A DNA stretch of 33,676 nucleotides from Clostridia bacterium (lineage in GTDB: Bacteria; Bacillota; Clostridia; Oscillospirales; Acutalibacteraceae), in assembly GCA_017623235.1 (NCBI GenBank), contig JAGAPN010000041.1:1-33676 (forward strand), given 5' to 3'. Positions 56-25,214 of this stretch are shown in pieces. Within the stretch, counting starts at the first letter, position 1; every line of letters starts with the position of its first letter. The position numbers were made by a program, and so were the translations under genes. The notes under the pieces were generated by a model, which was not told the DNA's origin, searched no databases, and saw only the letters and a list, made by a program, of their open reading frames with translations.

Positions 56-2245
56 TCAGTCCTTGAATTTCTCCAGAATGAAAAGCTCGTCCCAGGGCTT
101 GATATCCTGGTGGATGCGGCCACGGTCATTCTTTGCGCCTCCTCTTATATAGCCCTTGGACCGCATATAAGCGTTCCAGCGGTTATGCTCGGTAACACGG
201 CGGCGCAGACAGACCTCGCACATACAGATAAAGCTGTCGGTATGACCCGGGCAATCGGGAATAAACAGTCCTGCGGTTTTTTGCTTATGCAGAGCCCTGG
301 CTAAAGAGGCCTGCCTGTAGTATTCGAAGTTGGCGTAAAGTTCTACCTCGCCTAAAAGGGAGTCTATATCTATTATATCCTCATCGTCTATAAGATAGGT
401 GCTGCCCCAAGGAATTTCGGTCATATTAAGGGCGGCCATTTCGTCCTCTACCGTTTTTCTGAAGTCGGCATCCTCTCTGATATAGGTTTTAAGCCGTCTT
501 TCGGCGGCAACCCAGCTAAGGTGCTGACGGAAGGCCTCGGCCTCCCTTTCCTTTATTTTCTTTAAGGTTTCGCAGGAGTATTGGGTAGAAAGACCACCTA
601 CAAAATCTATAAAATAGGGCTGACCCTTATAGTTTTTGATAAATGCGCCCGAGGGTCTTCCCTTTTTATCAAAGGCACTGATATTCAGATTTTGAGCCTT
701 TCGGTCATCAAACACCACAGAATAAATCTGGGGAAAATCTACCGCGCCGAATTTAGGCACCTGGGCATTTGAACGCTTCACCTTACGGTCGAAAAGCTGG
801 CGCAGACGAATGGCAACGCTGATATTCGTATCGTCGTCACCCAGGGCCACAAGGGCAAGCTGGGTACGGGCAAGTCTTTCGGAATAGTCTGAGCCTTCAA
901 ACAGGTTGTCCAGTGACACGGTGTCGCAGTCCACGTCCGGAATGAATGCAATATCGTAGGCGGCGTCGCCCTCGGCGGTAGAGGGGTTGATTTTAACCAC
1001 CTCAGGAGCCTCGGCAGACAGTAAGGCAACCAGGTCGTTTTCGGAGTCGGAAACAATACCCTTATCTACCACGTTAATTTCTAATCTTATACCCTCCAGT
1101 TGGCAATACCACAGGGCGGTTTTAAGAAAAGCTTTGCCGATGCCGCCCATACCTGCGATAAGTATGGATATGTAGCCGTCCTGGCGAGCCAGGCCAAAAA
1201 TACCTGCCTTTTGCAGGATGTCCAGGGCCAGGTTTTCACTACTGCAGATTCTGCGAAGGGTAAAATTACCGTCAAGGGCGGTTTTGCCCACACCCTTCCA
1301 GAATTCTTCATTATCGCTGAGCATATCGTCCCGTGCGGCGGCGTTGGTTTTTATAAGCTCCTTAAACTCAGGATTTACCAGCAGATTTCCCTTTTCGGCC
1401 GAGTCAAGTATATGGCCGCTTTCCTCCGACTCGGCAAAAACGTTAACCGAAATACCCGGGCGGTTTTTATACTTCTCGGTAAGGCGGAGGGCCAGGGCCA
1501 CGTTTTTGGATTCATCAAGGCCGATAAGGAAGAAATTGACCTCCCTTTTAGAGCCGATACCTATATCACCGATCTCATTTGAAAGGCAGATAGCGCCCAG
1601 ATTATCGGTTTCATCCATACGCTCGTCCATACCTGCAAATACGATAACCGGCTTTACGGGTTTGGCGGAGAGATCACGTTTAAACAGGGGCTTTTCCTTA
1701 TATTTTTCCAAGGCTTTTTTATAGTCGTTGCTGATATTTTCCGCCAAAGCGAGGGAGTAATCGTTAACCTCCGACATAATATAGTGGGGTCTTCCCGAGC
1801 CAAAACGGAAAAGCACCTCGGCCACAAAGCTTTTAAAGAGGGTCAGTATAACACCTGCCGTCATAATGGGGGCGCAAAGGGTGACAAAGTACATATACAG
1901 AGTATAAATTTCCTTTACGTTTTCGCTGCAGTTCTGAATAATTCCACGGATATGCTCCAGCTCCAACGACATAAGGAACAGCTTGATTGTGTGATAAAAC
2001 AGCAGTACAAAGGCAGAAACGGTGCTTACGAAATCATCACTTTGGCTGAAAACCGCAGGCACAAAGGCCAGGGCCACCGCAATTACAATACCTACGGTAC
2101 AGGCCTGCCAACGGTTTAACAGGGGTATACCGTCTTTTTTACCCTTGGCACCTGCTACGGGGTGAAAGAGTGTGGAATAAATCACCGAGGCAATCGCCGT
2201 CACTACAGACAGCGAGCCGAAGATGATATACATTAGGTCATACAT
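56..2245 (-). CDS. Four-helix membrane protein with RCK/TrkA-N-like Rossmann domains and C-terminal RyR-like domain
   Basis: The 729-residue protein has four hydrophobic segments (about residues 5-27, 46-66, 72-94 and 113-140), so the N-terminus is a membrane module. The cytosolic part resembles RCK/TrkA-N regions of CASTOR/POLLUX-type channel proteins: a first Rossmann-like strand near 153-170, a second unit around 198-285, and a good dinucleotide-binding loop GMGGIG at 365-370, followed by VDKG at 393-396 and LVALGDDDTN at 465-474. The C-terminus carries EHNRWNAY at 686-693 and an HQDIKPWDEL stretch at 712-721, the signature I know from bacterial RyR domains. Three cysteines at 674, 676 and 679 could bind metal. 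The ATG has AAAGGAGA seven bases upstream. It lies 15 bases after the Card1-like gene and is surely co-transcribed. Family knowledge suggests ligand-gated ion flux or nucleotide sensing; a defence role is inference. The domain calls are by eye. Confidence 0.8.
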   Translation of the reverse strand: MYDLMYIIFGSLSVVTAIASVIYSTLFHPVAGAKGKKDGIPLLNRWQACTVGIVIAVALAFVPAVFSQSDDFVSTVSAFVLLFYHTIKLFLMSLELEHIRGIIQNCSENVKEIYTLYMYFVTLCAPIMTAGVILTLFKSFVAEVLFRFGSGRPHYIMSEVNDYSLALAENISNDYKKALEKYKEKPLFKRDLSAKPVKPVIVFAGMDERMDETDNLGAICLSNEIGDIGIGSKREVNFFLIGLDESKNVALALRLTEKYKNRPGISVNVFAESEESGHILDSAEKGNLLVNPEFKELIKTNAAARDDMLSDNEEFWKGVGKTALDGNFTLRRICSSENLALDILQKAGIFGLARQDGYISILIAGMGGIGKAFLKTALWYCQLEGIRLEINVVDKGIVSDSENDLVALLSAEAPEVVKINPSTAEGDAAYDIAFIPDVDCDTVSLDNLFEGSDYSERLARTQLALVALGDDDTNISVAIRLRQLFDRKVKRSNAQVPKFGAVDFPQIYSVVFDDRKAQNLNISAFDKKGRPSGAFIKNYKGQPYFIDFVGGLSTQYSCETLKKIKEREAEAFRQHLSWVAAERRLKTYIREDADFRKTVEDEMAALNMTEIPWGSTYLIDDEDIIDIDSLLGEVELYANFEYYRQASLARALHKQKTAGLFIPDCPGHTDSFICMCEVCLRRRVTEHNRWNAYMRSKGYIRGGAKNDRGRIHQDIKPWDELFILEKFKD

Positions 2246-2260
2246 CCGAAATTCTCCTTT

Positions 2261-3496
2261 TTAACTGCGGTAAAGTTTTTTAAGGTTCTTCTGAACCTCT
2301 TCTATGGGCATTTTACAAACGTTGTCTATAACGGTAACATCCATATCCTTTGCCCTGAGGAGTATGTATTTGCCGTGGTCGGTTTCACGGTCAAGCTCGG
2401 TCAGCACAAGAACCTTTCTGGCATAAATACCGCCGAACCTCTGGGCCACAGTGTGCAGCTTATAAAGCTCCTCCACGTTGACGGTGCCGTTTTTGCAGGA
2501 TATAAAGAAGGGCAGCATATCCTTCATAAGCATAACGTCGATTTCATTTTCCACGTCGGGGTTGTCCTCGCTGCGCTGACCGTCCCAATCTACGAAAACG
2601 CCGTTCATAACGTCGGTATAAAGAGGCTCTCCCTTATCAGTAATACCCATAGCCATAACGGTTATAAAAAGCTCCAGCACAGCACCTGCCTTGGTAAGCA
2701 GGCGTTTGATATCATGGTTTTTATAGGTGAATGAGATTTCGTTACCCCGAGTTCTAAAGTTGTTTATAAAGCCGTACCTTCTGAAACGGCTGAGCAGGTC
2801 GTCAACAAAGTCGGGTCTGATGTTACGGCTGATAAGCAGACTGCGAATGGCGGCCCGACTGAAGGTTACGTCAAGGTCCTCTGCAGTCGGCTCACCTACA
2901 GTATAGCTCTCCATATTGGTAAGCACTATATTCCAAGGGGTGTTTTCACTGCGACAGATATCCCAGATTTTTAAAACGTCGTCCTTAAACTCCTCTGTAA
3001 AGCTCCAACGGTAGGTGGTGTTAGGCTTTTCGTCCTCATAGATGATTCTTCCGCCGTAAATCTGCACGTTTTCCTCTATAGAAACACGGCTTGGCAGCCT
3101 GGCCACCAGCTTGCCGTCACCGTCACAGTCAATCATACGGCCGTTTATAACGTTATACCTGTGCAGGCTGACCTTATGACGGTATTTTTCATACACAATG
3201 CCCGTCGCCACCAGACAGAGGTCGTCACCACCTGTCAGGTCAAAAGCAAGGTCATCGTTGGCTTCGCATATATCGGAAAGCTTATCAATAATATTCTGAA
3301 GGTCATTTTTTATGACGCTTTCGCAGATTATCTCAGTTTCAATTTTTCTATCCTGCGCAACGGCTCTATAGGCCTCGGCGCATCTGTTCATTCTTTTTTT
3401 GTTATCACCGATAAGTATAATCTTCTGCGGAAAGCAGACCAGCATACTGACAACGTTTTCTACGAAATTTTCGTCAAAAAACTCTACAACCGTCAA
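2261..3496 (-). CDS. CARF-like/DUF1887 (Card1-type) putative nucleotide-activated nuclease
   Basis: The 411-residue protein starts with a Rossmann-like half (residues 1-130) containing FDLTGG at 85-90, the ligand-loop pattern of CARF-type domains in DUF1887 proteins. The middle (about 160-260) looks helical and winged. The C-terminal third has a PD-(D/E)xK-like arrangement: Glu275 in GAVLELF, Glu318 and Asp320 in NEIDV, and SCK at 333-335. This order is that of Card1/Can2, which are cyclic-oligoadenylate-activated DNA/RNA nucleases of type III CRISPR systems. Here no cas gene or array is visible, so the activating ligand is unknown. The start is TTG; AAAGGG lies nine bases upstream and no better start precedes it. 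The gene has its own promoter candidate and is followed after 15 bases by the RyR-like membrane protein. Alternative: a generic restriction-like nuclease fused to a Rossmann sensor. Confidence 0.8.
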   Translation of the reverse strand: MTVVEFFDENFVENVVSMLVCFPQKIILIGDNKKRMNRCAEAYRAVAQDRKIETEIICESVIKNDLQNIIDKLSDICEANDDLAFDLTGGDDLCLVATGIVYEKYRHKVSLHRYNVINGRMIDCDGDGKLVARLPSRVSIEENVQIYGGRIIYEDEKPNTTYRWSFTEEFKDDVLKIWDICRSENTPWNIVLTNMESYTVGEPTAEDLDVTFSRAAIRSLLISRNIRPDFVDDLLSRFRRYGFINNFRTRGNEISFTYKNHDIKRLLTKAGAVLELFITVMAMGITDKGEPLYTDVMNGVFVDWDGQRSEDNPDVENEIDVMLMKDMLPFFISCKNGTVNVEELYKLHTVAQRFGGIYARKVLVLTELDRETDHGKYILLRAKDMDVTVIDNVCKMPIEEVQKNLKKLYRS

Positions 3497-3527: not shown

Positions 3528-3536
3528 TCATTTTAT

Positions 3537-3565
3537 ATAATAACATATTTTGTCTGAAAGAACAA
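3537..3565 (-). promoter_or_regulatory. Predicted sigma-70/SigA-type promoter for the Card1-like/RyR-like pair
   Basis: On the minus strand a -35 candidate TTGTTC (3565-3560) and a -10 candidate TATTAT (3542-3537, one mismatch to consensus) are separated by exactly 17 bases. The region is AT-rich and lies between the terminator of the transporter operon and the TTG start at 3496. The -35 box is weak, so the call rests mainly on the -10, the spacing and the position. Confidence 0.5.
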
Positions 3566-5405: not shown

Positions 5406-7688
5406 TCACTGTGATACGAAAACGGCGCTTTCACCATCTACCGTAACAGTGCCTTCGGTAAAGGCCTCTTCACCGTAGTTTACATATATGGTTCCGTTTT
5501 CGTAGGTGATTTTAAATACCAACTGATTTAACCTCTTGTGGGAAAGCATTTCCTTGCCCTCCACCTTATCAAGCAGGTCGTTAATATAGGAATAGGTTGC
5601 CTCGATAGTAGCCTTCCAGTCGGTAAAGCGGGTAGAGCTTCGGTCGGCCAGGGTGGTCTTGCTGAGGTTGATGTTCTTCTCCTCGGTAAGAATAAAGGAG
5701 GGATGAACGTTGTACTCAATACACTTGAGCAGGTCTATTTTGGAATAGAAGCTCTCGTTAGCGTAGGGAGCCACCAGGGTCATATTGCCCGAAAGCACCA
5801 GCTGAAGGAAGGGCACAGAATCGGTTTCATAAAGCTCCTGATTACCTGAAACGGGGGCGTTACGGTAAACCGAGGTGTAGGAAAGCAGATATTCGTTGGG
5901 GTTATAAAGGGTCATACCCTTATCCCCTGCAATTCCCTTTACGGTGCTGCTGAGCATATCGAGAACCTCCTGACGAGAGGTAAAGTTGTCGATAATGTAC
6001 TCGCCGTAAAGCAGGTTTCCGCCGTCAAGAGAAACGCCCAAGCCCTGCTCTGCAATCAGCTCGGACTGACGGGTGAGGAATTCCATCGCAGGTTCTGCTT
6101 TGACGTACCAAAGGTCGCCCAGGAACTTCCTGTTATCCACGGCAGGCTTTGTAATGGTGCTTTGAGAAAGGGTTATTCCTGCATCTCTACGGCTGTTTAT
6201 CTGTACAGAGCGGGCACGGAGGGGGTCGGAATAAAGCAGTAAGCTACCCTGCTTATCCTTTAGCAGGCTTTGCAGAGAGGATAAAAGGTCGAAGCCGCCG
6301 TAAACGGTGGACTTATATATTTCCGATTTCTGATAGCCGTTAAGGCCGCCCTTCTGCCAGCCCTGGATCGCCAGCGAAATGTTGGCAATACCCTTGTCCT
6401 GCAAGACTTTTACCGACTCTTCGATATATTCAAGGCCTGTAACGTCGGTAGTGCGGTTGCTGAGCAGACCCTTCTCAATATCGGCCGCAATGAAATCAAG
6501 GGCGATGTTGGGGGCATCCTCCGACATATTGTTTTTAAGGGCACCCTCCTCCTTCAAAATGGAGGCGTAGGTCTTTGCCATACCGCTATAGTTGGCCTTT
6601 TCACCCGAGAGGAAATAGATATCCATAACAGGGTTTACGGTGTTGGCGTTCTTCTGTACTACGGGAACGCCGGCGCCGTTTTTAGAGGTAGGCTGTGAAT
6701 ATACCTGACGGTATACGAAATAAGCTGTAGTCCAGTTGTAATCGGTGGATATACCTGCAGGTGTAGCATTGATGTAAGCATAAGGTTTACCCTGCTTTAC
6801 ATATCCGAATACTGCCTGGTTATTTACACCGTGGGTAAGACCGAAAACAGGCATAGTAACGGTGTTTTCGGGCTTAAGAAAGTCGATGGGACGATTGGAA
6901 TCAAGGTCGTTGATTTCGCTAAGGCTATCTATAGCGTGGTCAATACCGAAGACGCGGGATGCGAAAGGCTTTAAGAACTTCGAGGGCCTGCGGTAGCGCA
7001 GTAATGCGCCGCTGCCGTCGGGTACGAAGAGGTAACCGTCGGCCTGGTCGCCCTGGGTGCTTCCGAAGAAGGGAACAAAGTAAACGGCAGAAACGAAATA
7101 TTCGCCGGTTTCTTCAATAGAGGAATCCTCTAAGGAGAAGCTGATTCTATCCTCATAAAGGGTAATCTTGGCCTCAAGCTTAATATCAATCTTACGGCCG
7201 AAATCTACCGAGCAGAGGATGCTGTCCTTCTTTATTTTATACTTACACTTTGCATCCTTATGACCTGCGCCAATCTGCTTTAAGGCGCCTGTTTGGTCGA
7301 TGTAGGAAATGCTGACTATAGACTGGGCAAAGGAGCCCCAGGTATTATTAAGATTCTCGGGGTCCTCGTTTTCCAGGGCGCCCCAAACATATCCCGTGGC
7401 CTTATTAAGCACGCGAATTGAGGCATATTCCTCATTAAGGTAGAGGGCCAGCGCATCGTTTTCGCAGGCCAGCTCGTATCCCTCTAAGGGATAGTTGGGC
7501 AAGGGTTTTGTTCCGTCCGGCTCAAGCTGGGTAAAGCGGTTGGAGGAGAGCTGTTCAATATCGATATCTCCCATAAGCGCCTCGGTAACCTCGTAGTTGT
7601 CTACATCACCCTGGGATGCGCATCCTACCGTGAACAGCATTAAGAAAGCCATAAGGAAGGTTGCTATTCTTTTAGGACAAGAAGACAC
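5406..7688 (-). CDS. DUF5696-type surface lipoprotein, possible cryptic glycoside hydrolase fold
   Basis: The 760-residue protein has a lipoprotein signal ending in FTVGC with Cys23 as the likely lipidated residue. I recognise the long body as the DUF5696 type that accompanies sugar permeases in Firmicutes; its function is not established. The N-terminal half (about 60-370) is strand-rich, with GYLFVPDGSG like the sandwich domains of large glycosidases. The C-terminal half (about 390-700) alternates helices and strands in a barrel-like rhythm, including LLLYSDP and VSLDGG with Asp555. This suggests a beta-sandwich plus TIM-barrel protein, possibly enzymatic or a glycan-binding relic; that is inference. 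The start is GTG with GAGGTGA six bases upstream, overlapping the end of the NHL/Yip1 gene by 17 bases, so the two are translationally coupled. Confidence 0.75.
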   Translation of the reverse strand: MSSCPKRIATFLMAFLMLFTVGCASQGDVDNYEVTEALMGDIDIEQLSSNRFTQLEPDGTKPLPNYPLEGYELACENDALALYLNEEYASIRVLNKATGYVWGALENEDPENLNNTWGSFAQSIVSISYIDQTGALKQIGAGHKDAKCKYKIKKDSILCSVDFGRKIDIKLEAKITLYEDRISFSLEDSSIEETGEYFVSAVYFVPFFGSTQGDQADGYLFVPDGSGALLRYRRPSKFLKPFASRVFGIDHAIDSLSEINDLDSNRPIDFLKPENTVTMPVFGLTHGVNNQAVFGYVKQGKPYAYINATPAGISTDYNWTTAYFVYRQVYSQPTSKNGAGVPVVQKNANTVNPVMDIYFLSGEKANYSGMAKTYASILKEEGALKNNMSEDAPNIALDFIAADIEKGLLSNRTTDVTGLEYIEESVKVLQDKGIANISLAIQGWQKGGLNGYQKSEIYKSTVYGGFDLLSSLQSLLKDKQGSLLLYSDPLRARSVQINSRRDAGITLSQSTITKPAVDNRKFLGDLWYVKAEPAMEFLTRQSELIAEQGLGVSLDGGNLLYGEYIIDNFTSRQEVLDMLSSTVKGIAGDKGMTLYNPNEYLLSYTSVYRNAPVSGNQELYETDSVPFLQLVLSGNMTLVAPYANESFYSKIDLLKCIEYNVHPSFILTEEKNINLSKTTLADRSSTRFTDWKATIEATYSYINDLLDKVEGKEMLSHKRLNQLVFKITYENGTIYVNYGEEAFTEGTVTVDGESAVFVSQ

Positions 7689-9702
7689 GATAATTCACCT
7701 CTTTTATAACCGAAATGACCATACTTACAAGCTGGTCGCAGAACATATAAACCAATGATACTGCCAATACCACCACTGCCATAAGGAAGACGGTAATAAG
7801 CAGATTTGCGATTGCGGGACCGGTTTCGAAGGCGTGAATTTCACGGGTGGCAATAAAGAGATATGCCACAACCCAGAAGAGCATAGCCGTAAGTGCCAGC
7901 TGAAGCAGGCGCAGCTCGTTACCGGTGATAATGTGAGAAATAAGAATGATAAAGGGCATTGTTACCGCAAAGGGTGACAGAACGTAGGGTGTTGCCACCA
8001 GAACGTCACGGAAGCGGGCCTCGCCCTCCCCTACCGAGCTTACCAGGTAGTTACTGCCTACAAACAGTGCAACAGGTACCCAGAAGAGCATTGAAAGGAG
8101 AAGAATTGAGGTTTCCTGGGCGGTATTGCCTATAAGGGCAAAGCCCGAAGCCATAAAGTAACCTATAAAGAGCAGATATTCAATCACGTAAAGCACAAGG
8201 GCCGTGGGAATATGGCCCTTACCCTCACGACGGATTGCATAAAAACCGTCGATGGGGTGACGAATCACCTTGAATATCAGCAGGAAGTCGTCCTTCCAGA
8301 TGGAGGGCTTCTTAGGTTTGTTAGAGGGCTTATGGAATTTCTTATAAAGTATGCGGGCAATTATAAGCAGTATAATACCGCCTATGGCGTAGGGCACCAG
8401 GATACCTATTTGGTCGTTACGAATCTGCCAATAGGCCTCTGAATAGCCTTCCTTATTACCTGCCAGCTTATAGTGTGCCACAGCCAGCTCATATTCCTGC
8501 TCCTCGAAGAGGCACTGGGCAAGGCTGTTTTCTACGTAGTAGCCTGCGCCACCCACGGCAGCAATATGACGCCAAAGCTGAGCGCTTTCCTCGTATTTAC
8601 CGAGGTTATAAAGGCTTATAGCCTCGTGATAGGTTTCGGCGTAGTCTGTGGGGCGCATAATATGCACAAGGCCTCTCTCGCCGTCCAGCACGTAAAGGCG
8701 GCCCTCGTCATCACAGGTGATGGCCGAAACGGTGGTAAACACGCCGTTTCTCTCGGCGGCTATAGCACGGCCGCCAAAGGTGAAGAGCAGCTCTCCGTTT
8801 ACGTCATACTCAAAGAGCAGACCTGTAGAGGTCGCAGCATATATACGGTTTTCGGGGCCAACGCAAACGTCGATGAAATCGGGCTCGTCAGCCATTGTAT
8901 TGGGAAGCAGGTTGTGACCTGCCACGTCGTGCTTTTTAAGGGCGTTACCCTCGGCCGACTGGGTTACGGTATACATCATACCCTTATTATCCATAGCAAC
9001 GCTTTTAAAGGAATAAGGTATACGATTGGTAAGCTGGGCCTTCATCTCTTCGGTGAAGAAGAAGTCAACCACGTAATCCCAAAGGGTAATGGGGTTATTG
9101 TTGTATCCGAAATAGCCCAGGAACTCACCCTGGTGGTCCAGCTGAACAATACCGTCGAAGGAACCCTCGGAAACTATGTAGATAGTGCCTGCGGCATTTA
9201 CTACCACCTTGGAGGGACGGTAGATAGCATCGCTACCAAAGGTAACGGTGGTAGGACGGCCGAGGCGCTTGGTAATATTTCCGTCAGCGTCAAAGATAAA
9301 CATTTCACCGGCTTCACTGTCGGCAACGTAAAGGCTGCCGTCTTCATTTACAAACAGGCCGGAGGGAGCCTTAAGCTCACCCTTTCCCCACTCTGTATAG
9401 GAGCCGTCCTCAAGATTATAGAGAATCACACGGCCGCCTCCTGTATCGGCCACGTAAAGGATACCGTCCTTAACGATAATATCCTGGGCCTGAGTGAGGG
9501 TAATCTCCTGCATAATTACGTTACTTACCTGGTAGGCGTCCTGAGTACGTATCCAGTCACCTGTTACCGAAGGAGTGTAGGTATAGGCAGAAGCGCTTTC
9601 GGCTGAAACGGGAGCCGCCAGGGATACCAGCAGCAGTACAGCCAGCACAGGCAATATCAGCTTGCGCACAAGCCTTGAGCGCATAATGCTGAAGTGTTTC
9701 AT
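7672..9702 (-). CDS. NHL-repeat/TPR-like extracellular sensor fused to a Yip1-family membrane domain
   Basis: The 676-residue protein has an N-terminal signal peptide (about 11-35, ending PVSAES). Residues 60-350 hold NHL/beta-propeller repeats with recurring xLYVADxxxG and GxIYxVS strands. Residues 355-425 form a short TPR-like helical stretch (YNLGKYEESAQLW, then QEYELAVAHYKLAG). A membrane segment follows at 432-453, then a basic linker, and a region at 470-676 with about five membrane helices that resembles Yip1 domains (DGFYAIRREGKG at the start). The propeller should face outward. Such proteins occur beside DUF5696 proteins and sugar permeases; the role, perhaps substrate presentation or transporter assembly, is unknown. 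AAAGGAGT lies six bases before the ATG. Confidence 0.8.
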   Translation of the reverse strand: MKHFSIMRSRLVRKLILPVLAVLLLVSLAAPVSAESASAYTYTPSVTGDWIRTQDAYQVSNVIMQEITLTQAQDIIVKDGILYVADTGGGRVILYNLEDGSYTEWGKGELKAPSGLFVNEDGSLYVADSEAGEMFIFDADGNITKRLGRPTTVTFGSDAIYRPSKVVVNAAGTIYIVSEGSFDGIVQLDHQGEFLGYFGYNNNPITLWDYVVDFFFTEEMKAQLTNRIPYSFKSVAMDNKGMMYTVTQSAEGNALKKHDVAGHNLLPNTMADEPDFIDVCVGPENRIYAATSTGLLFEYDVNGELLFTFGGRAIAAERNGVFTTVSAITCDDEGRLYVLDGERGLVHIMRPTDYAETYHEAISLYNLGKYEESAQLWRHIAAVGGAGYYVENSLAQCLFEEQEYELAVAHYKLAGNKEGYSEAYWQIRNDQIGILVPYAIGGIILLIIARILYKKFHKPSNKPKKPSIWKDDFLLIFKVIRHPIDGFYAIRREGKGHIPTALVLYVIEYLLFIGYFMASGFALIGNTAQETSILLLSMLFWVPVALFVGSNYLVSSVGEGEARFRDVLVATPYVLSPFAVTMPFIILISHIITGNELRLLQLALTAMLFWVVAYLFIATREIHAFETGPAIANLLITVFLMAVVVLAVSLVYMFCDQLVSMVISVIKEVNYRVFLS

Positions 9703-9720
9703 ACATTTACTCCTTTCGGT

Positions 9721-10593
9721 TTACTTAATTCCTGAATGGGCCATGGTACTCATAACCCTGGACTGCATTATAACAAAGAGAATAACATTAGGCATAAACA
9801 TAAGCAATGCCGCGGCCGCCGACATACCTACACCTGCAACGCCGTTACCCGAAACCGAAAGGCTGTTCATATAGAAGGCGAAGGTTTTAAGGGACTCGGT
9901 GCTGATAAACAGGTTGGAGGCCTCCATACTGTTCCAGGAATTCTGGAAAAGCAGGATAGCGGTGGTGGCAAGGGCCGATTTTACCAGAGGCATAATGATT
10001 TTAAAGAGAATCTGGTAATCGTTGGCGCCGTCTATGGTGGCCGACTCGATGAGGGCGTCGGGCAGCTGATCAACGAATTGCTTCAGCAGGAAGACTGTAA
10101 CCGGCACCGCCAGCATAGGAATTATGTTTGCAAAGAAGGAGTCAAGCAGACCAACCTCCTTAACGATGAGGTAACGGGGTATGCTGACCGCCGTAGCCAC
10201 AAACATCATAGAAAGATTGTTAAGCTTGAATATAAGATCACGGCCACGGAAGCGCTTCTTTGAAAGCACGTATGCCGAGGCAGTTGCAATAAACATACCA
10301 AGGAATACTACCGATACGGTGGAAACTATACTGTTGAAGAGGTACATCGACAGGGGGAACACCGTATTTTCCGAAGCCTCAAAAAGCTTACGGAAGTTGT
10401 CCCAGGTGGGGCGCTCGGTAATAAACTGCGGGGGGTATGCAAAAAGCTCACCTATAGGCTTGAAGGCGGTGAAAACGATATACATTATAGGTAATATCGC
10501 CAACGCCAGCATAGGCAGCAGCATTAAATAAACAGGAATCTGTCCGCGGTCGAAGCGAAGCTTTTTAACCCTGATTTTATGCTTCTTGGTCAA
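9721..10593 (-). CDS. Carbohydrate ABC transporter permease, MalG type (first pair)
   Basis: The 290-residue protein has six membrane segments and the ATPase-contact loop IESATIDGANDYQILFKI at about 182-199, with Ser-Ala replacing the usual Ala-Ala of the EAA motif. Size and order fit a MalG-like CUT1 permease. The start is TTG (LTKKHK read as Met), with AAGGTGA six bases upstream; no ATG fits better. It follows its MalF-like partner by about 33 bases and precedes the NHL/Yip1 gene by 18 bases. Together with the solute-binding protein gene upstream this forms a complete binding-protein-dependent importer apart from the ATPase. Confidence 0.88.
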   Translation of the reverse strand: MTKKHKIRVKKLRFDRGQIPVYLMLLPMLALAILPIMYIVFTAFKPIGELFAYPPQFITERPTWDNFRKLFEASENTVFPLSMYLFNSIVSTVSVVFLGMFIATASAYVLSKKRFRGRDLIFKLNNLSMMFVATAVSIPRYLIVKEVGLLDSFFANIIPMLAVPVTVFLLKQFVDQLPDALIESATIDGANDYQILFKIIMPLVKSALATTAILLFQNSWNSMEASNLFISTESLKTFAFYMNSLSVSGNGVAGVGMSAAAALLMFMPNVILFVIMQSRVMSTMAHSGIK

Positions 10594-10626
10594 AGGAAAT
10601 CACCTTACTTTTCTTGAATTTGAATT

Positions 10627-11547
10627 TTAATCGTCGCCGAACATCTTATAGGCCAGCTGGCTTGCACCGTAAATAATTACGAGAAGCACAACCGACAATG
10701 CGGCGGCATAACCCATTTCATAGCGGATAAAGCCAAAGTCATCAACGTGGTTAACTATCAGGGAGCCTGCATAGTTAGGCGTGGGGTTGGAGCCCGAAAG
10801 CTGTACACCCAGACCTGCCGAGTTGAAGGTGTTAACAATGGCCATACCCGCACCGAAAAGCATCTGCGGACGAATGGAAGGTACTGTTACGTAAATTGCC
10901 TCCTGTACGCGGTTTTTTACACCGTCGAGGCGGGCGGCCTCATAAAGCTCGGGGTTAACGTTAAGAATACCCGAAAGCATAGAAAGGAAGCCGATACCAA
11001 GGCTTGACCAGAGAGCAACGAGAATCATAATAGGCATAAGTGTGTCGGCGTTCTGGAGCCAGGTAATGGGTGTCTGGATAAGACCCAGACGAAGAAGAAT
11101 ACTGTTAAGATAGCCTGTACGGTCACCCGAGAAAAGCACCGCCCACACGGTGGATACCGTAACACCCGCCGTCATAGAGGGGATGTAAAGGGTAACCGCC
11201 AGAATGGTACGGGGTACCTTGGAGAGCAGGGACAGAAGCCAGGCCATTGCGAAGGCCAGGATATATCCTCCGGGGCCTACAATAACGGCATAAAGCACGG
11301 TATTGGGCAGTATCTTCTGCATAAAAATGGAATCCTGGGAGAAGATTCGTATGTAGTTGTCGAAGAATACTATGCTGGGGGTTTCCACGGCGTTAAAGTC
11401 GGTAAAGGAAAGGCCAATAGCAAAGATTATCGGCAAAATTATAAACACTAAAAACAGCACAAGGAAAGGAGCAATGAGTACAATATGTGAGTACTTTATA
11501 AAAGGATTCTCAAACCTGCGCTTATTTAATGTATTAACGGCGCTCAT
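10627..11547 (-). CDS. Carbohydrate ABC transporter permease, MalF/UgpA type (first pair)
   Basis: The protein has six hydrophobic segments, starting with VLIAPFLVLFLVFIILPIIF, and the permease loop YEAARLDGVKNRVQEAIYVTVP near residues 202-223. It is the MalF-like partner of the next gene. Two in-frame ATGs are possible, at 11553 and 11547. I chose the second (MSAVNTL, 306 residues) because AAAGGAG then sits nine bases upstream, against only three bases for the first. It begins about 18 bases after the end of the solute-binding protein gene, so the two are cotranscribed. Confidence 0.88.
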   Translation of the reverse strand: MSAVNTLNKRRFENPFIKYSHIVLIAPFLVLFLVFIILPIIFAIGLSFTDFNAVETPSIVFFDNYIRIFSQDSIFMQKILPNTVLYAVIVGPGGYILAFAMAWLLSLLSKVPRTILAVTLYIPSMTAGVTVSTVWAVLFSGDRTGYLNSILLRLGLIQTPITWLQNADTLMPIMILVALWSSLGIGFLSMLSGILNVNPELYEAARLDGVKNRVQEAIYVTVPSIRPQMLFGAGMAIVNTFNSAGLGVQLSGSNPTPNYAGSLIVNHVDDFGFIRYEMGYAAALSVVLLVIIYGASQLAYKMFGDD

Positions 11548-11556
11548 AATCATTAT

Positions 11557-11563
11557 CTCCTTT
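11557..11563 (-). promoter_or_regulatory. Ribosome binding site deciding the permease start
   Basis: AAAGGAG on the minus strand lies nine bases before the ATG at 11547 but only three before the in-frame ATG at 11553. The spacing favours the shorter protein. Confidence 0.6.
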
Positions 11564-11565
11564 CT

Positions 11566-14475
11566 TTATTTTTTATCGGCAAGCAGTTCCTCAAGGGACT
11601 GCATATTATAGGACTTGACCTTATTAAACTTCTCGTCCATAAAGCCGAATTCACGAAGCTTGATATTAAGCTCAAGCTGAACGTCTACCGCCGCATCGTT
11701 AAGGGCGTTTCTGACAGGAACGTGCTCGTTAACCACGTCGTACCAGGCGTTACTGAGAGAACGCTCAAGCATATAGGTAGCGGGGGTATTTCTTACGTTC
11801 TGTGTGTTATTTCTCTGCTGAAGCACCGTATCACGGTGGTCAGAGGGAATAGCCAGGTTTTCAAAAGCGTTGTTGTTAGCGCTGTTCCAGACGAATTCAG
11901 AGCCGAACTTGGCCTGGAGGGTCTGCGAAAACTCAGTCTGGGCATCATCCGACATCCACCACTTAATGAAATCCCAGGCGGCTTCCTTCTTGGTGCTGCT
12001 GCTGAGAATAATGGCAGAACGGTCGGTGGTATTCATCTGATTATAAACGGTGCCATCCTCTCCCTCAAAGCCGGGAACTGCGGCAATAGACCACTGGTCG
12101 GCTATTTCGGGGGCGGCATAAAGCATCTGAACGTAGTTTTCAAAGCTACCGATACCCAAGGGGGTAACACCGTAGCGGAAATTGTTATAGAAGCTGGGTA
12201 TGTTGTTCTGCAGGCCGTAAAGCAGGTAAAGGTCGGTAAGGCTCTGGAAAGAGGAAATACCTATTTCGCTGTTGAAGTTAATGCTCATACCGTCCTCGCT
12301 CCAGAGGGCGTAAAGAGGATTCTTTCCTGCGGCAGAGCAGGCCTGATAGAAGAAGGGTGACATATTACCCAGGGTTTTGGTACCGGTCTGCGCCGAGAGC
12401 GGCAGATAGAAGTTCATACCGTTACGGCGGAGGGTAGGCATAAGCTCGGCCACGTCGTCCCAGGTGCGGGGTAGCTCAATTCCCAGGCGGTCGAGAATAT
12501 CCTTACGGTACATAAGGGTATAAACCTGCTGGGTTTCGGGAATGGCGTATACCTTGCCGTCGTAAATATAAGCCTCAAAGGCGTTGGAATCAAATTTATC
12601 GGTTATAAATTCCTCAAAATCAGCAAAATCGGAAAGGGGTGTTGCCGCACTTCGAAGACCCAGCTGATAGGGTCGGTCGCCCGTAACGCTGAGGGCTACG
12701 TCGGGACAGGTGTTGGAGGCGTTGGCCAGCAGCAGCTTGCCCTCATCAGGCATAATTGAGAAATTAACCGTCCAGGTATGACCGTTTGCATCGGTATAAC
12801 CGGGATAACGGGAGTCGGCCAGCATCTGAATGGTTTCAACGTAGGGCACCGAACGGTTTACCCATACGTTAATGGCGTCATCCCTTACGTCCGATGCGCT
12901 GTAGTTGGCATTACGGGAAACAAGGGAGAAGAAGAAACGCTTAACCGAGTTTGCAATATTAAGGAAGAAATTACCGTTGGCGTTGGGCAGCTTGGCATCA
13001 TCTGCGGTAAGGTAGATGTTGTCAAGGTTAAGACCCTGGGCCTTCCAGCCGTTAATAAGCTCGGCCAGTAGGTTGGTGGCAGAGCCTGAGCCTATATGAA
13101 TTTCCTCGGTACGGGTAGGAAGCTTTTCGGGCTTCTTAAGAATTTCCTTAATCATACTGGAGGCCAGCTGGAGATTAAGGCTGGAGGCAGGAACCTCACC
13201 GTAGGCCTCTTCAAGCTCATCATAAAGCTCATCAAGGCGGGAATAAATGGATTCCAGAGTTTTGGTAACACCGGGGAGATAGGTTTCGATTTCCCAGCTA
13301 CGAGTCTGGTCGGCATCGGAGCCTGCTATCTGCTGGAGGCTGAGACCTATATCCTGCAGGGTTTCCATAAGACCCTGAACCTCGTTAATGAAGGTGGCCA
13401 TTTTGGGCACCTCAACGTACATACCTAAGGTGTGCTGACCCTTTGTAAGGTAAACCTTGCCGTCCACCTGCTTGTAAGCGTATCTGTTACCGGTATAGGC
13501 AAAGGGAACGCTGCGAAGCTCTTCATAAGGGATAACACCGTCTATTTCAATACTGCGGCAGGAATCCTGGCCTTCCTTGGAGGCCTGGGAATAGTGGAAG
13601 GTTAGATTATACCAGCCATCCTCGGGTACGGTGAAATTCCACACAACACGCTGGCCTATGGAGTTCCAGGCGTTGCCGTCAACGGTGGCAAGCCACTTAT
13701 AGTAGGGATTATAGGGGGTAACCGAAGCATTAGCGCCGGCCTTATTACGGATAAATGAGTCGGACTTTACAGCGTAATCCTCACCCTCGATTATAATGGT
13801 ATCGCCCTCATAATCGCTGCCGGAATGGGCCGCCTTATACTCCTCAAAGGGTAGGAGGTCGTCATATTTTACGACCTTGACCCCTTTAAGGGTTACACCA
13901 ATATCGTTGCTGAGCAGCTTCAGTCTCTGCTGACCGCCTGCAAACTTAAATATAACGGGGGCCGCATCTACCGAGGTGAAATCACGGACGTAGTCGGTAA
14001 TATCAACGTCCAGCACGGTCTGGGAGGGTGTAACCTCGTTGCCGTAGCGGTCAAGATTATACTCCTTGCTGACATCCTGCCAAATGCTGTAAACGCTGGT
14101 TCTGGCTTCCTGGTCTTCCTCGCCGAAAAGGGTTACGGTAACGGTACTGTCCAGCATAACCTTCTCGGTGGGACGGTAGGTAAGAACAATTGCATATTCC
14201 CCTTTAGAAGGAACATCCACGGTAAGTTCTATGCTTTCTTCAGGCATCAGCGTAGTGTTTTCGGGCACTAACGCTTCAGCCACAACATTACTTTCGGGTA
14301 TGGTAAGCCACCCCTTAAAGGAGGTGTCGGCATCGGCCCTGACAGGACGCTCAACATCCAGCTCGGCAGGAGAAGCGGCCATAGCAGGAGTAATACCTAC
14401 GACAAGCAGCATCACAAAGGCTACCGTTACCGCAACCAGCCTCCTTAATGCCCAAATTTTGGTTTTAGGTTTCAT
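11566..14475 (-). CDS. Giant solute-binding protein fused to CBM-like domains
   Basis: The 969-residue protein has a signal peptide ending AMAAS near 34 and no lipobox cysteine. Residues 40-205 form a strand-rich domain. Residues 228-356 look like a CBM6/35-type domain: IEGEDYAVKSD, VPEDGWYNLTFHY and LTKGQHTLGMYV. Residues 360-450 are helical, possibly coiled. Residues about 535-930 resemble family 1 extracellular solute-binding proteins, with INVWVNR, IPETQQVYTLMYRKDILD and later KEAAWDFIKWWMS. Normal family members are about 400-550 residues. It lies directly upstream of a MalF/MalG permease pair, so it most likely captures an oligosaccharide for import. How it stays on the cell without a lipid anchor is unclear: an uncleaved signal helix, binding to a partner, or release are all possible. 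AAGGAGA lies seven bases before the ATG. Confidence 0.85.
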   Translation of the reverse strand: MKPKTKIWALRRLVAVTVAFVMLLVVGITPAMAASPAELDVERPVRADADTSFKGWLTIPESNVVAEALVPENTTLMPEESIELTVDVPSKGEYAIVLTYRPTEKVMLDSTVTVTLFGEEDQEARTSVYSIWQDVSKEYNLDRYGNEVTPSQTVLDVDITDYVRDFTSVDAAPVIFKFAGGQQRLKLLSNDIGVTLKGVKVVKYDDLLPFEEYKAAHSGSDYEGDTIIIEGEDYAVKSDSFIRNKAGANASVTPYNPYYKWLATVDGNAWNSIGQRVVWNFTVPEDGWYNLTFHYSQASKEGQDSCRSIEIDGVIPYEELRSVPFAYTGNRYAYKQVDGKVYLTKGQHTLGMYVEVPKMATFINEVQGLMETLQDIGLSLQQIAGSDADQTRSWEIETYLPGVTKTLESIYSRLDELYDELEEAYGEVPASSLNLQLASSMIKEILKKPEKLPTRTEEIHIGSGSATNLLAELINGWKAQGLNLDNIYLTADDAKLPNANGNFFLNIANSVKRFFFSLVSRNANYSASDVRDDAINVWVNRSVPYVETIQMLADSRYPGYTDANGHTWTVNFSIMPDEGKLLLANASNTCPDVALSVTGDRPYQLGLRSAATPLSDFADFEEFITDKFDSNAFEAYIYDGKVYAIPETQQVYTLMYRKDILDRLGIELPRTWDDVAELMPTLRRNGMNFYLPLSAQTGTKTLGNMSPFFYQACSAAGKNPLYALWSEDGMSINFNSEIGISSFQSLTDLYLLYGLQNNIPSFYNNFRYGVTPLGIGSFENYVQMLYAAPEIADQWSIAAVPGFEGEDGTVYNQMNTTDRSAIILSSSTKKEAAWDFIKWWMSDDAQTEFSQTLQAKFGSEFVWNSANNNAFENLAIPSDHRDTVLQQRNNTQNVRNTPATYMLERSLSNAWYDVVNEHVPVRNALNDAAVDVQLELNIKLREFGFMDEKFNKVKSYNMQSLEELLADKK

Positions 14476-15458: not shown

Positions 15459-18400
15459 TTACTGTTCCTTCTTTTTCTTCTTTGCAAGAAGTATAAAGAA
15501 GATAACGGCGGCAGCGCCAACTGCGGCAGCTGCAATACCGATAATCACCCAAATCATACCGGAAGAGCCTGCGTTTGTATCGGCATCGGTATCGGGCTCT
15601 ACCGCATCTCCGCTTGCAGAGGGAGTCTTAACTGTAAGCTGAGCCTGATTTACGTTGGAGGCATCAATGTTAAAGAGGTTTGTGTTGTCGGTTTCGGCAC
15701 CCGTAAGTCCTGCAGACAGTACGAGAGCATCATGGTCTATCCAATACAGACGGTAGGTTTCGTCCTTAATGCCGTTGCTTCTGTAGCAATCATAGTACTC
15801 GGCCAGAAGGGTTGTAAAGATAATGGTATTTTCACCCTTTTCAAGGTCTACCGAGATAACCCTTCCCAGGAAGTTGTCATTGGCAGAGGCTGCAAAGCTA
15901 ACCTTCTGCTTTGCGCCGTCGTTAACACGCATTGCAAAGGCGAAGTTGCCCAGTTTATCAATTTCCTCCTGAGTATAGGTATCGGTACCGCCGTGGAAGA
16001 GTACCGTAATATCATAAGTACCCTTAGCCTCGGCATATACGGTGTACTTAACATGGGCGGCCTCTCCCAGATTGTCCATATCAAGCTTTTCAAAGGTCAT
16101 ATCGTATCTGTCAAGAACGTTATAGGAAGCACTACCCAACATTCTGCCGCCCGATGCACTTCCGTTGTCGGCGATGTTGTAGCCTGCAAATTCGGAACGT
16201 TCAGCCTCAATAATGCCGCCGTTAGGCTTCATTGAAAGCTTGCCGACATATTTGCTGGGGATTTCGATGTAATCGAAGTTGGCCCATACGTAACCTGCAT
16301 CCAACGACTTTGCGGGTACGGTGCACATAATTACGTTCTGACCCTTCTTAAGGTCGGCCTTAACGGTAAGGAAGCTCTTGGAGGTGCTCTTAGCGGCAGT
16401 TCTCTCGAATATCTGGTTCTTGCCGTTGACGCTGACTACAAAGTTGGCCTGGGCAGAGGTTGCATCACTTCCGTAGATAGCATAACCTACGAAAATGCTG
16501 AACTCATAGGTGCCGGCCTCGGCAGCATTAATGGTAAACTTAGTCAGAGGTGTTCTTTCGGGAACGATACCGTCTTTCTTTATTTCGGCAAGGGTCTGAT
16601 TCTTATTGTAGCTACCGCCGCCGATATGCTTGCCGCCCGAATAGCCGTTTTCATCCCTGTACTTCATCCTGTTGGGCAGAGCGTAGTCCTCAGCCTCGTA
16701 AATAACTGGGTCAGAAGCCGTCCTGGGATTCTGCTGGGTGGCGGCAACGGTAATGCCGTCATAGAAGGTAACACGGTCGAAGTTCATCCACATATAGCCT
16801 TCACTTGTCGATTCCATAGGAATTGAGGTGGTAAAGGTCAGGACGTGAGTGCCCTTTGTGAGATAGGTGGAAATATCAGCGGTGTTCTGGTTAACGTTTT
16901 TAGCAACACGACCGTAATAAACGGGGGTAACAACGCCGTCTACCACCATAGCAAGGAAACCTGTAGTATTTACGTTATTAGCGTTGTAGTTAAGACGCAT
17001 ACTGTAGAAGTTATCCTCGGGAACGTCAACGGTTACCGAGAAATAAGGAGCGTAATAGAGGTCCTCTGCAGTAAAGCTCTTAAAGGTGAAGCCCTTGCCG
17101 CTAAGACCGCTGCGGTCATCCTTACCAAGAACCTTATCACCGGAGGCTGCCTCGCCCTTCTCTCCTGCCTGAACCTGGATTCTGTTGATAAACTTACTGT
17201 CTTCAGCTTCAAATACAACGGCAGTACGCTTTTCAGCGGTGAGGGCCTTATCAAGGTCAATAAAGTCGTGGTTAATATAGGTCTTTTCTATCTTATAGAA
17301 ATCCTGTTCGGCGGTGGTACCTGTAACTCTTATGTAGTTGCGGCCTTCCTTAAGCTCAACCTTAAGCTCTATAGCCTGAATGGTCATATAGTCTGCGGTA
17401 TACTGAGCCTTGTAGGTCTTATCGTTAACCATAACAAGAGCAAAGGGTTTGGTAACGCTTTTATCCTTCGGGGAGTCGGCCATATAGCCTACACGGATAC
17501 TGTACTCGCCGTCAGCGGGGGCGGTTACCATATACTCAATAAGGCCGATGTGCGCCATATCAAGACCGTTTTTCTCAATATCCTGCAGGGTCTGGGTGGT
17601 CATCCATCTGGCCACTCCGCCTACTACCTTGCCGCCCGAAGCGTTTGTATTGTTTTCGCCTGCGCCGTTATAGAGGTTATATACGGCGTAATCGTTATCC
17701 TCTGCCTCAACACGGTTGTGGAAGGGCAGGATAATATCTGCCTTGTCGGGAGCCTCCAAAGCGGTAAGGCCACGGCCAAGGATTATATTGTAATAGTCAA
17801 TAGCGGGATATGCATCTCTGGATGCGTCCTCGTTATTGATAGCGGTAGTCATTTTTTCAGCGTTATAAAGGTTAGGAGCAATATTCTTCAGCTCTTCCCT
17901 GCTTTCGGGCATAGGTACGGTGAAGACTATGATATGCTCACCCTTGGTAAGCTGAAGATTTGCATAGATAGCGGCATCGTTCTTTACTTTAAAGGGAACT
18001 GTTGCAGCCTTGCCGTCTATGAATACTGCGATAGTATCAACGGTGGTGGTGGCACGGAGCCAGCCGGCCTGCAGAATCATCTGGTAGTTACCGTCCTCTG
18101 CGGCAGAAACCTTGATTGCGGCATAGGCAGTACGATACAGATTATCGTAGGTGATTTTATCCAGGGTCATTCTGTCCCAGGAGCTGTTGCCAATCTCTGC
18201 GCCGCCGATATAATCGCCTTTGTCGGAATACTGATTAAGGGTAACCTTGTCGGTATCACCGACCTTAACCACCTGAGAGGTGGAAACGGGGGTAACGTTT
18301 ACAGGGATGTCTATATAGTCGTAGTTAATATAAACCCAGCCGCCCTTGGATTTCTCGAACTGGGCACAGGCCTGCTCGGTAGTAACGGCAATGGTGCGAA

Positions 18401-20522: not shown

Positions 20523-20585
20523 AAAATCTGTCCTTTCTTTTATGATGAATGGATTGCTTAATTTGGTTTAACAACAACCAGCCAA

Positions 20586-20603
20586 TGCTTGCAAAAGCAA
20601 GCA
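20586..20603 (-). repeat. Intercistronic hairpin upstream of the anchored CBM-array gene
   Basis: TGCTTGC and GCAAGCA form a perfect seven-base-pair stem with a four-base loop. It sits in the leader of the 1687-residue protein gene, about 64 bases before its start, downstream of a stronger hairpin. No U-tract follows on the coding strand. Confidence 0.5.
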
Positions 20604-20630
20604 CTTGATGCTTATTGCTAAAAGCTTCCC

Positions 20631-20662
20631 AATATGGGTGGCGGCTCGCCGCCACCCATATT
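20631..20662 (-). repeat. Strong 14-bp intercistronic hairpin after the dockerin/beta-helix gene
   Basis: Arms 20631-20644 and 20649-20662 are perfectly complementary over 14 bases with a four-base CGAG loop on the coding strand. It begins about 20 bases after the stop codon. The coding strand continues with TTGGGAAGC instead of a U-run, so it does not look like a simple intrinsic terminator; the T-rich flank lies on the plus-strand side. Confidence 0.7.
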
Positions 20663-20682
20663 TAATTTATAGTGCTGGGGGA

Positions 20683-25077: not shown

Positions 25078-25088
25078 ACAATAATTCA

Positions 25089-25094
25089 TCCTTT
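25089..25094 (-). promoter_or_regulatory. Ribosome binding site deciding the start of the dockerin/beta-helix protein
   Basis: AAAGGA on the minus strand overlaps the in-frame ATG at 25089, so that codon cannot use it. It is 11 bases from the ATG at 25077, which gives the signal peptide MKMKRLL, similar to the sister proteins. Confidence 0.6.
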
Positions 25095-25107
25095 CTTAAT
25101 ATTTTGT

Positions 25108-25129
25108 CAAGGTCTGGGTCAGGACCTTG
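25108..25129 (-). repeat. Intercistronic hairpin in the leader of the dockerin/beta-helix gene
   Basis: CAAGGTC (25108-25114) pairs with GACCTTG (25123-25129) around eight bases. It lies about 30 bases before the start codon. It is the third hairpin in this 137-base gap; A-rich sequence, not a U-tract, follows on the coding strand. Confidence 0.5.
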
Positions 25130-25144
25130 GCGGTTTTATTTTCT

Positions 25145-25169
25145 CCGTTGGTTGCAAGATTTCCAACGG
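25145..25169 (-). repeat. Intercistronic hairpin, second in the gap
   Basis: CCGTTGG (25145-25151) and CCAACGG (25163-25169) form a seven-base-pair stem with an 11-base loop between two other hairpins. No U-run is present. Confidence 0.45.
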
Positions 25170-25186
25170 TTATAACGGGGGTTGGG

Positions 25187-25208
25187 CCGTCGGGCCGAGG
25201 CCCGACGG
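25187..25208 (-). repeat. Strong GC-rich intercistronic hairpin after the GH30 multimodular gene
   Basis: CCGTCGGGC (25187-25195) and GCCCGACGG (25200-25208) pair perfectly around a CTCG tetraloop on the coding strand. It starts seven bases after the stop codon. GC-rich bases follow it on the coding strand, so it is probably not an intrinsic terminator. The tetraloop is the complement of that in the 20631-20662 hairpin. Confidence 0.7.
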
Positions 25209-25214
25209 ATTTAA

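What the first reader, a model, noticed from the sequence alone, without database searches (positions are those of the whole stretch)
56..3496. Two-gene module: Card1-like CARF nuclease plus RCK/RyR membrane protein without CRISPR genes in view
The first gene has a CARF-type FDLTGG loop and a PD-(D/E)xK-like core (Glu275, Asp320, SCK 333-335) as in DUF1887/Card1 proteins, which are activated by cyclic oligoadenylates made by type III CRISPR. Its partner, 15 bases downstream, is a four-helix membrane protein with Rossmann units and a RyR-like domain. The pair has its own promoter candidate behind a strong terminator. A nuclease sensor coupled to a possible channel suggests an abortive-infection-like module responding to a nucleotide signal from another source.
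Basis: partly seen in the sequence, partly recalled or inferred. Interest (0 to 1): 0.82.

Follow-up and report, generated by a model that had tools for sequence, protein, structure and literature searches.

The report
CRISPR-free CARF nuclease with RCK-RyR membrane partner
Two neighbouring genes of a gut bacterium encode a nuclease of a kind usually switched on by CRISPR alarm molecules and a membrane protein that joins a potassium-channel-type gating ring to a ryanodine-receptor-type nucleotide pocket; they recur together in draft genomes of relatives in which no type III CRISPR genes were found, so they may form an undescribed alarm-signal response system.

The parts
2261..3496 (-). Card1/Can2-like CARF nuclease, 411 aa (CARF about 3092-3496, PD-(D/E)xK-type domain about 2297-2722)
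56..2245 (-). RCK-RyR membrane protein, 729 aa
   Evidence: AF2 pLDDT 90.0, pTM 0.85 from 40 sequences; relatives
1802..2245 (-). N-terminal four-helix membrane part (residues 1-148)
   Evidence: helices 2-27, 45-66, 72-91, 108-148 in the model; hydrophobic windows at the same places; one GsuK row and the MthK rows align from residue 43-48 on
446..1792 (-). tandem RCK/TrkA-N gating-ring part (about residues 152-600)
59..367 (-). C-terminal RyR (R12-type) domain (about residues 627-729) with H687, W690, H712, D729
   Evidence: hhalign 97.5%, E 6.7e-12 against standalone RyR proteins; four residues invariant in 40 of 40 sequences, window included, with RyDEP spacing
2246..2260 (-). 15-bp gap between the two genes
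   Evidence: gaps of 14, 16, 23, 144 and 15 bp in L093, L096, L109, L118, L171
3578..3603 (-). intrinsic-terminator-like hairpin upstream of the pair
   Evidence: 11 pairs, T-rich tail; 1 found, 0.2 expected
3530..3558 (-). promoter-like site of the pair (weak)
   Evidence: TTCAGA-17-TAAAAT, 9 of 12

Best explanation
The two genes are the core of a CRISPR-independent nucleotide-signal response module of gut Clostridia. Shown by homology and modelling: a CARF-PD-(D/E)xK protein of Card1/Can2 type, and a membrane protein made of four helices, a tandem-RCK ring and an RyR R12-type domain with the ligand residues kept. Shown by comparison: the two occur together far above chance, with a Clp-like AAA plus FtsH (M41) fusion, a standalone RyR protein and a YbjN-like protein as recurrent companions. 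Inferred: a nucleotide alarm signal made under stress or infection binds the RyR domain (ADP-ribose/cADPR type) and the CARF dimer (a ligand other than classical cA4); the RCK ring passes binding to the membrane helices and changes ion permeability, while the CARF protein turns on its nuclease; the AAA protease remodels or removes targets. The result would be growth arrest or death, most simply as antiviral defence.
For: Folds. RyR residues H687/W690/H712/D729 have the spacing 0/3/25/42 of RyDEP H75/W78/H100/D117; one membrane-protein relative, in G007, passes the PF02026 cut-off. Co-occurrence: 12 of 394 genomes have both, 37 the nuclease, 27 the membrane protein, p 5.1e-7; by genus 10 of 169, p 2.8e-4. 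Linkage: 7 of 80 membrane-protein loci hold the nuclease or its fused domain (roughly 0.11 expected), 7 of 7 on the same strand; 7 of 28 nuclease loci lie within 2 kb of a module gene. On the nuclease tree the link needs 9 changes, at least 5 forced by supported branches, so it was gained or lost repeatedly. Fusion: a 1494-aa protein of G035 joins a kinase, a stretch similar to the Rossmann-RyR half of two membrane-protein relatives (L064, L065) and a Card1_endonuc domain, next to a standalone RyR gene. Companions: Clp-FtsH in 5 of 7 nuclease loci against 5 of 73 others, p 2e-4; YbjN-like in 6 of 7 against 4 of 73. TIR genes lie within 200 bp of the membrane gene in 11 of 80 loci.
Against: 20 of 28 nuclease loci read show neither module nor cas genes. 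The window setting is a xylan-use locus with no defence or mobile gene among its 15 main proteins. The ExK glutamate of the nuclease is Ser in 34 of 34 sequences, so nuclease activity may be altered or lost. No pore or selectivity motif was identified. No signal-making enzyme was found beside the pair; TIR is in 0 of 7 nuclease loci. The module label is not clustered on the nuclease tree (69 of 500 shuffles as low), so many members seem to live without the link. The G033 relative with the same pocket changes lies in a type III-B operon, so the pocket does not exclude some cyclic oligoadenylate; membrane-protein locus L136 has a Cas10-like gene 4.4 kb away.
Confidence: 0.5

Rival explanations
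1. The nuclease is an ordinary type III CRISPR accessory that answers in trans to a Cas10 elsewhere in the genome; the membrane gene is a coincidental or secondary neighbour.
For: The 41% identical relative in G033 closes a type III-B operon with Cas10 palm and GGDD. Membrane-protein locus L136 holds a Cas10-like gene, E 7.5e-49. The window genome is only 71% complete.
Against: No RAMP match in 8 of 8 genomes holding the pair or its fused form; the mCpol model, which also finds Cas10 palms, passes its cut-off in 1 of 15 genomes, G033, with one match under cut-off in G151. In 148 relatives the nuclease is not associated with RAMPs (2 of 20 against 7 of 128, p 0.35). Six cas proteins of G033 find no relative in the ORFs of 26 of 27 nuclease loci, the exception being G033 itself, and PADLOC finds no Cas family among 66 neighbours of 19 of them. 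Can2 contacts S19, K99 and Y118 are changed in most sequences.
Confidence: 0.12
2. A non-defence stress or homeostasis system: the RCK-RyR protein senses NAD/ADP-ribose or ion state and the CARF protein takes part in RNA or DNA turnover.
For: The window and many nuclease loci lie among metabolism or housekeeping genes (by eye). RCK rings bind NAD and ADP/ATP in GsuK and TrkA (structures with these ligands are among the rows).
Against: Patchy distribution (37 and 27 of 394 genomes), repeated gain or loss of the link, and TIR genes beside the membrane gene in other loci look more like conflict systems.
Confidence: 0.25
3. The CARF protein is a catalytically dead sensor or nuclease-fold scaffold and the membrane protein is the only effector.
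For: S333 replaces the ExK glutamate in 34 of 34 sequences.
Against: E318, D320 and K335, the counterparts of Can2 E276, D278 and the ExK lysine, are invariant in 34 of 34, as is E275; D303 is kept in 32 and D305 in 33 of 34. Such conservation is not expected of a dead site.
Confidence: 0.18
4. Chance adjacency of two unrelated genes at a contig edge.
For: In the 148 nearest genomes the two are adjacent only in the window's own.
Against: Tight same-strand adjacency in five further genomes and co-occurrence p 5e-7.
Confidence: 0.02

Closest known systems
Can2/Card1 (DUF1887, CARF4) type III CRISPR nucleases
   Same: Whole fold, CARF TGG loop, active-site pair E276/D278 (here E318/D320), ExK lysine
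   Different: cA4 contacts S19, K99, Y118 become D8, D92, R113; ExK glutamate becomes Ser; no type III genes found in the pair genomes; paired with a membrane protein
VC1899 of Vibrio cholerae, orphan CARF nuclease
   Different: No RCK-RyR partner is mentioned in the passages read; R96 there, D92 here; VC1899 keeps ECK
RCK-gated channels and gating rings (GsuK, DMI1/CASTOR, TrkA/KtrA)
   Same: Membrane helices leading into a tandem RCK ring
   Different: No GYG or GFG filter motif in the sequence; a C-terminal RyR domain is added
RyR R12-domain proteins, including phage RyDEP and animal ryanodine receptors
   Same: Ligand residues H/W/H/D at the same spacing
   Different: Here at the end of an RCK membrane protein; the window protein ends at the Asp, without the helix that follows in standalone RyR proteins; its single-sequence Pfam score fails
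Membrane and TIR effectors of type III CRISPR (Cam1, Csx23, Cat1)
   Same: Nucleotide sensing coupled to a membrane or NAD effect (abstract starts)
   Different: CRISPR-linked single-protein effectors (in part recalled); here two proteins and no CRISPR genes found

Membership tests
Card1/Can2 CARF nuclease | CARF plus PD-(D/E)xK fold over the whole length | tested here: met
Card1/Can2 CARF nuclease | active-site Glu/Asp pair (Can2 E276/D278) and Lys | tested here: met
   E318, D320, K335 in 34 of 34 sequences
Card1/Can2 CARF nuclease | ExK glutamate | tested here: not met
   S333 in 34 of 34 sequences
Card1/Can2 CARF nuclease | cA4-contact residues S19, T42, K99, Y118 | tested here: not met
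   window D8, D31, D92, R113 by HMM alignment; T42 lies at an insertion and is the least certain
Card1/Can2 CARF nuclease | nuclease activated by cA4 | not testable with these tools
   needs purified protein
type III CRISPR accessory | linked to or co-occurring with Cas10/RAMP genes | tested here: not met
   no RAMP in 8 of 8 pair genomes; type III genes at 1 of 28 card loci. Caveat: draft genomes, window genome 71% complete
RCK-gated channel | tandem RCK gating ring | tested here: met
RCK-gated channel | K+ selectivity filter | tested here: inconclusive
   no GYG or GFG in the sequence; one TVG that falls in helix 2 and is not followed by YG; some RCK channels are recalled to lack the motif; no pore assay
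RyR domain (PF02026) | score over the Pfam cut-off | tested here: not met
   no match for the window protein; weak in relatives L064, L062, L093; one relative, in G007, over cut-off at 27.6 bits against 27.4 with its neighbours
RyR domain (PF02026) | homology and ligand residues H, W, H, D | tested here: met
   hhalign 97.5%; invariant in 40 of 40 sequences
Thoeris | TIR (ThsB) next to the effector | tested here: not met
   none of the 15 main window proteins matches TIR; 0 of 7 card loci; TIR does occur elsewhere in 8 of 8 genomes
CBASS | CD-NTase (SMODS) gene | tested here: not met
   0 of 8 genomes

The most novel reading that the evidence does not exclude
A CRISPR-independent immune module in which a membrane receptor-channel with an RCK ring and a bacterial ryanodine-receptor domain reads TIR-type ADP-ribose signals, and a CARF nuclease with a re-wired pocket reads the same or a second signal: a bacterial counterpart of cADPR-gated RyR signalling, and a CARF effector freed from cyclic oligoadenylates.
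Probability: 0.22. Interest if true: 0.95.

Novelty: new variant of a known kind. Interest (0 to 1): 0.76.

Why it matters
CARF effectors are studied mainly as servants of type III CRISPR; what orphan Card1-like nucleases such as VC1899 answer to is open. This module gives such orphans a recurrent partner and a candidate chemistry (ADP-ribose-type ligands at the RyR site), and a membrane family that my Pfam, NCBIfam and PADLOC scans of the window protein and of some relatives did not name as a family. If the membrane protein is a ligand-gated channel, it would link the RyR nucleotide pocket to ion flux in bacteria, which bears on whether cADPR acts directly on animal ryanodine receptors.

Tried and rejected
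Plain sequence searches of the PDB with either window protein gave only one chance-level row each (E 0.8); the nuclease profile did find Can2 and VC1899. A genome-collection scan with the single nuclease sequence found no relatives, a viral scan with its alignment none. Pfam hits of the membrane protein to Fst toxin and CLC channel, and of L081 to Cas7, are far under cut-off and rejected. The idea that the nuclease replaces TIR at the locus was tested: 0 of 7 against 23 of 73, p 0.18, not significant. TIR presence in 8 of 8 pair genomes has no matched background and is not counted as evidence. A Clp-FtsH search of the window's own genome found separate FtsH- and Clp-like proteins but not the fusion; missing contigs make this weak. 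Phage RyR relatives were listed, 221 records, not followed. The Rfam scan and tRNA scan of the window were empty. The YbjN-like HMM was built from nuclease loci, so its enrichment is partly circular. L217 has a weak Clp-FtsH match beside the nuclease (E 3.8e-7) that did not pass and was counted as unlinked. The 28 nuclease loci are the window, 8 and 19 from the stronger rows; G341 and the weaker rows were not read, nor were the more distant ones counted. The membrane-protein scan kept the best 80 of 207 relatives. Structure libraries barely tested the RyR part of the model. PADLOC matches of neighbours in the 19 loci were to IetA, DolB, TRIP13 and the like (which one search also gives for a Clp-FtsH fusion) and to mads_2, mads_3 and mads_8 (1, 3 and 2 of 66 proteins), HTH_VI, AriA, RmrA and others; the call does not say which proteins, and I did not follow them.
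Full report
Observation. The window is the entire contig C63 of a 1.61-Mb, 84-contig draft genome, 71% complete. The two ORFs and their 15-bp gap are as described. Upstream of the pair lie an 11-pair terminator-like hairpin and a weak promoter-like site. The other main proteins of the window look like a xylan-use locus: ABC permeases, DUF5696, an NHL/Yip1 protein, a solute-binding protein, GH43, a GH115 C-terminal match and three GH30 proteins, one 1468-aa protein without a match at 1e-5. No cas family is among their matches, and no tRNA or Rfam family was found. Because the contig ends 55 bp past the membrane gene, the rest of the operon is unknown.

Are they partners? Among 148 nearest genomes the nuclease (E <= 0.001) is in 20 and the membrane protein in 8; adjacency is seen only in the window. 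A scan with the membrane-protein alignment over a collection of 84,980 species genomes gave 207 relatives, 80 kept, mostly from gut or rumen Clostridia by their titles. Seven of the 80 loci hold the nuclease or its fused domain: L093 (nuclease, two membrane genes, RyR), L094, L096 (Clp-FtsH, membrane gene, nuclease), L109, L118 (nuclease, membrane gene, Clp-FtsH, membrane-like gene, RyR), L171, and L122 with a kinase-nuclease fusion. In 7 of 7 they are on one strand; the gaps are 14, 16, 23, 144 and 15 bp in five, 1.1 and 4.7 kb in two. A rough Poisson estimate is 0.11 expected.

Searching from the nuclease side, 28 loci were read (window, L211-L229, L043-L049, L007). Seven have a module gene within 2 kb on the same strand: a membrane gene (window), an RyR gene 11 bp on (L211), RyR plus membrane genes (L213, L214) or the Clp-FtsH gene (L226, L046, L049). 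One is in a type III-B operon (L043). Twenty show neither (some contigs are short). Six cas proteins of G033 used as queries find no relative in the ORFs of the other 26 of 27 loci given, PADLOC finds no Cas family among 66 neighbours of 19 loci, and the RAMP family search covers the genomes of the 8 older loci. Even so, the two proteins co-occur in genomes: of 394 order-level genomes 37 have the nuclease and 27 the membrane protein (E <= 1e-30), 12 both; p 5.1e-7, 2.4e-6 without the window genome, 2.8e-4 by genus. In several of these (G105, G244, G287, G332, G466) the two lie on different contigs. The nuclease tree needs 9 changes of the module label, at least 5 forced by supported branches; the label is not more clustered than by chance (69 of 500 shuffles as low). 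So linkage was gained or lost repeatedly. In G035 one 1494-aa protein joins a protein kinase, a stretch like the Rossmann-RyR half of membrane-protein relatives L064 and L065 (it does not hit the window protein directly) and a Card1_endonuc domain, followed at once by a standalone RyR gene.

Companions. The Clp-FtsH protein has AAA_2, AAA and Peptidase_M41 domains. At E <= 1e-100 it is in 5 of 7 nuclease loci and 5 of 73 others (p 2e-4). A YbjN-like protein (PF10722 only at E 0.046 in one of four tested) is in 6 of 7 and 4 of 73, with an HMM built mostly from these loci. TIR is in 0 of 7 and 23 of 73 (p 0.18), and within 200 bp of the membrane gene in 11 of 80 loci. So the membrane protein may have two alternative settings, with TIR or with the nuclease plus Clp-FtsH; the TIR contrast alone is not significant.

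Where would a signal come from? The eight genomes with the pair or its fused form gave no match to RAMP or SMODS. An mCpol search, whose model also matches Cas10 palms, rang over cut-off in 1 of 15 genomes, G033, whose Cas10 has GGDD at residue 291; G151 (the genome of L109) had a match under cut-off. The eight have 5-10 TIR matches each, without a background count. RAMPs are not associated with the nuclease in 148 genomes (p 0.35), RyR is (6 of 20 against 10 of 128, p 0.01). Among the 80 membrane-protein loci one, L136, holds a Cas10-like gene (E 7.5e-49) and no nuclease; it was not followed.

Mechanism. The parts argue for two nucleotide sensors with different outputs: a CARF nuclease and an RCK-RyR membrane protein. 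Fold, residues, linkage and co-occurrence are shown computationally. That the RyR site binds an ADP-ribose-type signal is inferred from RyDEP; that the RCK ring gates a pore is inferred from fold; that the CARF ligand is not classical cA4 is inferred from the pocket, with the G033 relative as a caution; defence is inferred from family membership only, and the genomic setting does not support it directly.

Known or new. Card1-like orphans outside CRISPR are already recorded in print (passages). The pairing with an RCK-RyR membrane protein did not come up in my paper searches, which cover open-licence papers only; two relevant surveys asked for by DOI (recalled as Makarova 2020 and Burroughs 2015) were not held, so prior mention there cannot be excluded. 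Papers other than PMC13232231 were seen as passages (PMC7969007, PMC4012209, PMC11229360, PMC9503650) or search listings.

Noticed in passing
L082 (G035:C55) 6098-10582, L092 (G065:C12) 9458-13237, L122 4297-8808: Very large proteins carrying a Card1-like endonuclease domain at the C-terminus (under the Pfam cut-off in L122); in L082 and L122 fused to a protein kinase. The L082 and L092 domains read ECK where the window clade reads SCK.
   Followed up: partly
L060, L118, L171, L081 and others; e.g. L118:6551-10027: A roughly 1,100-aa fusion of a Clp-like AAA unfoldase with an FtsH-type AAA and M41 protease, recurrent beside the RCK-RyR genes; scores for both parents are far under the NCBIfam equivalog cut-offs.
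   Followed up: partly
L043:12133-15873; L063; L121, L130, L133, L139, L149, L162, L169: A Tubulin_2 protein 3.9 kb from the nuclease in G033, and relatives of it near the membrane gene in G007 (L063, in two frames) and in 7 of 80 loci.
   Followed up: no
L136:3881-5425: A Cas10-like gene (E 7.5e-49 to the G033 Cas10) 4.4 kb from an RCK-RyR gene, without a CARF nuclease in the stretch.
   Followed up: no
L122:15912-21116: Next to a kinase-CARF fusion and an RCK-RyR gene: two vWA-type proteins, a 702-aa protein and a protein kinase, recalling TerY-type vWA/phosphatase/kinase triads (recalled; one vWA and the kinase were confirmed by Pfam, the 702-aa protein had no real match).
   Followed up: no
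G000:C72:33893-34165 (L078:8888-9178): The window's genome has a standalone RyR protein on another contig, beside what look like ABC transporter genes.
   Followed up: no
phage records: 221 phage records hold an RyR-domain match; two human faecal phage contigs (MT837259, MT836850) are 66% and 64% identical to the Clostridial standalone RyR protein of L093.
   Followed up: no
window 15459-30662: Three very large proteins (1687, 1468, 1815 aa) in a xylan locus; the 1468-aa one has no Pfam match at 1e-5.
   Followed up: no
L219-L222 (G351, G424, G447, G394): In one group of four genomes of one genus the CARF nuclease sits in conserved synteny with no module gene.
   Followed up: no
neighbours of the nuclease in L211-L229: PADLOC mads_2, mads_3 and mads_8 profiles match 1, 3 and 2 of 66 neighbours; which ones is not told and they may be generic enzymes.
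   Followed up: no
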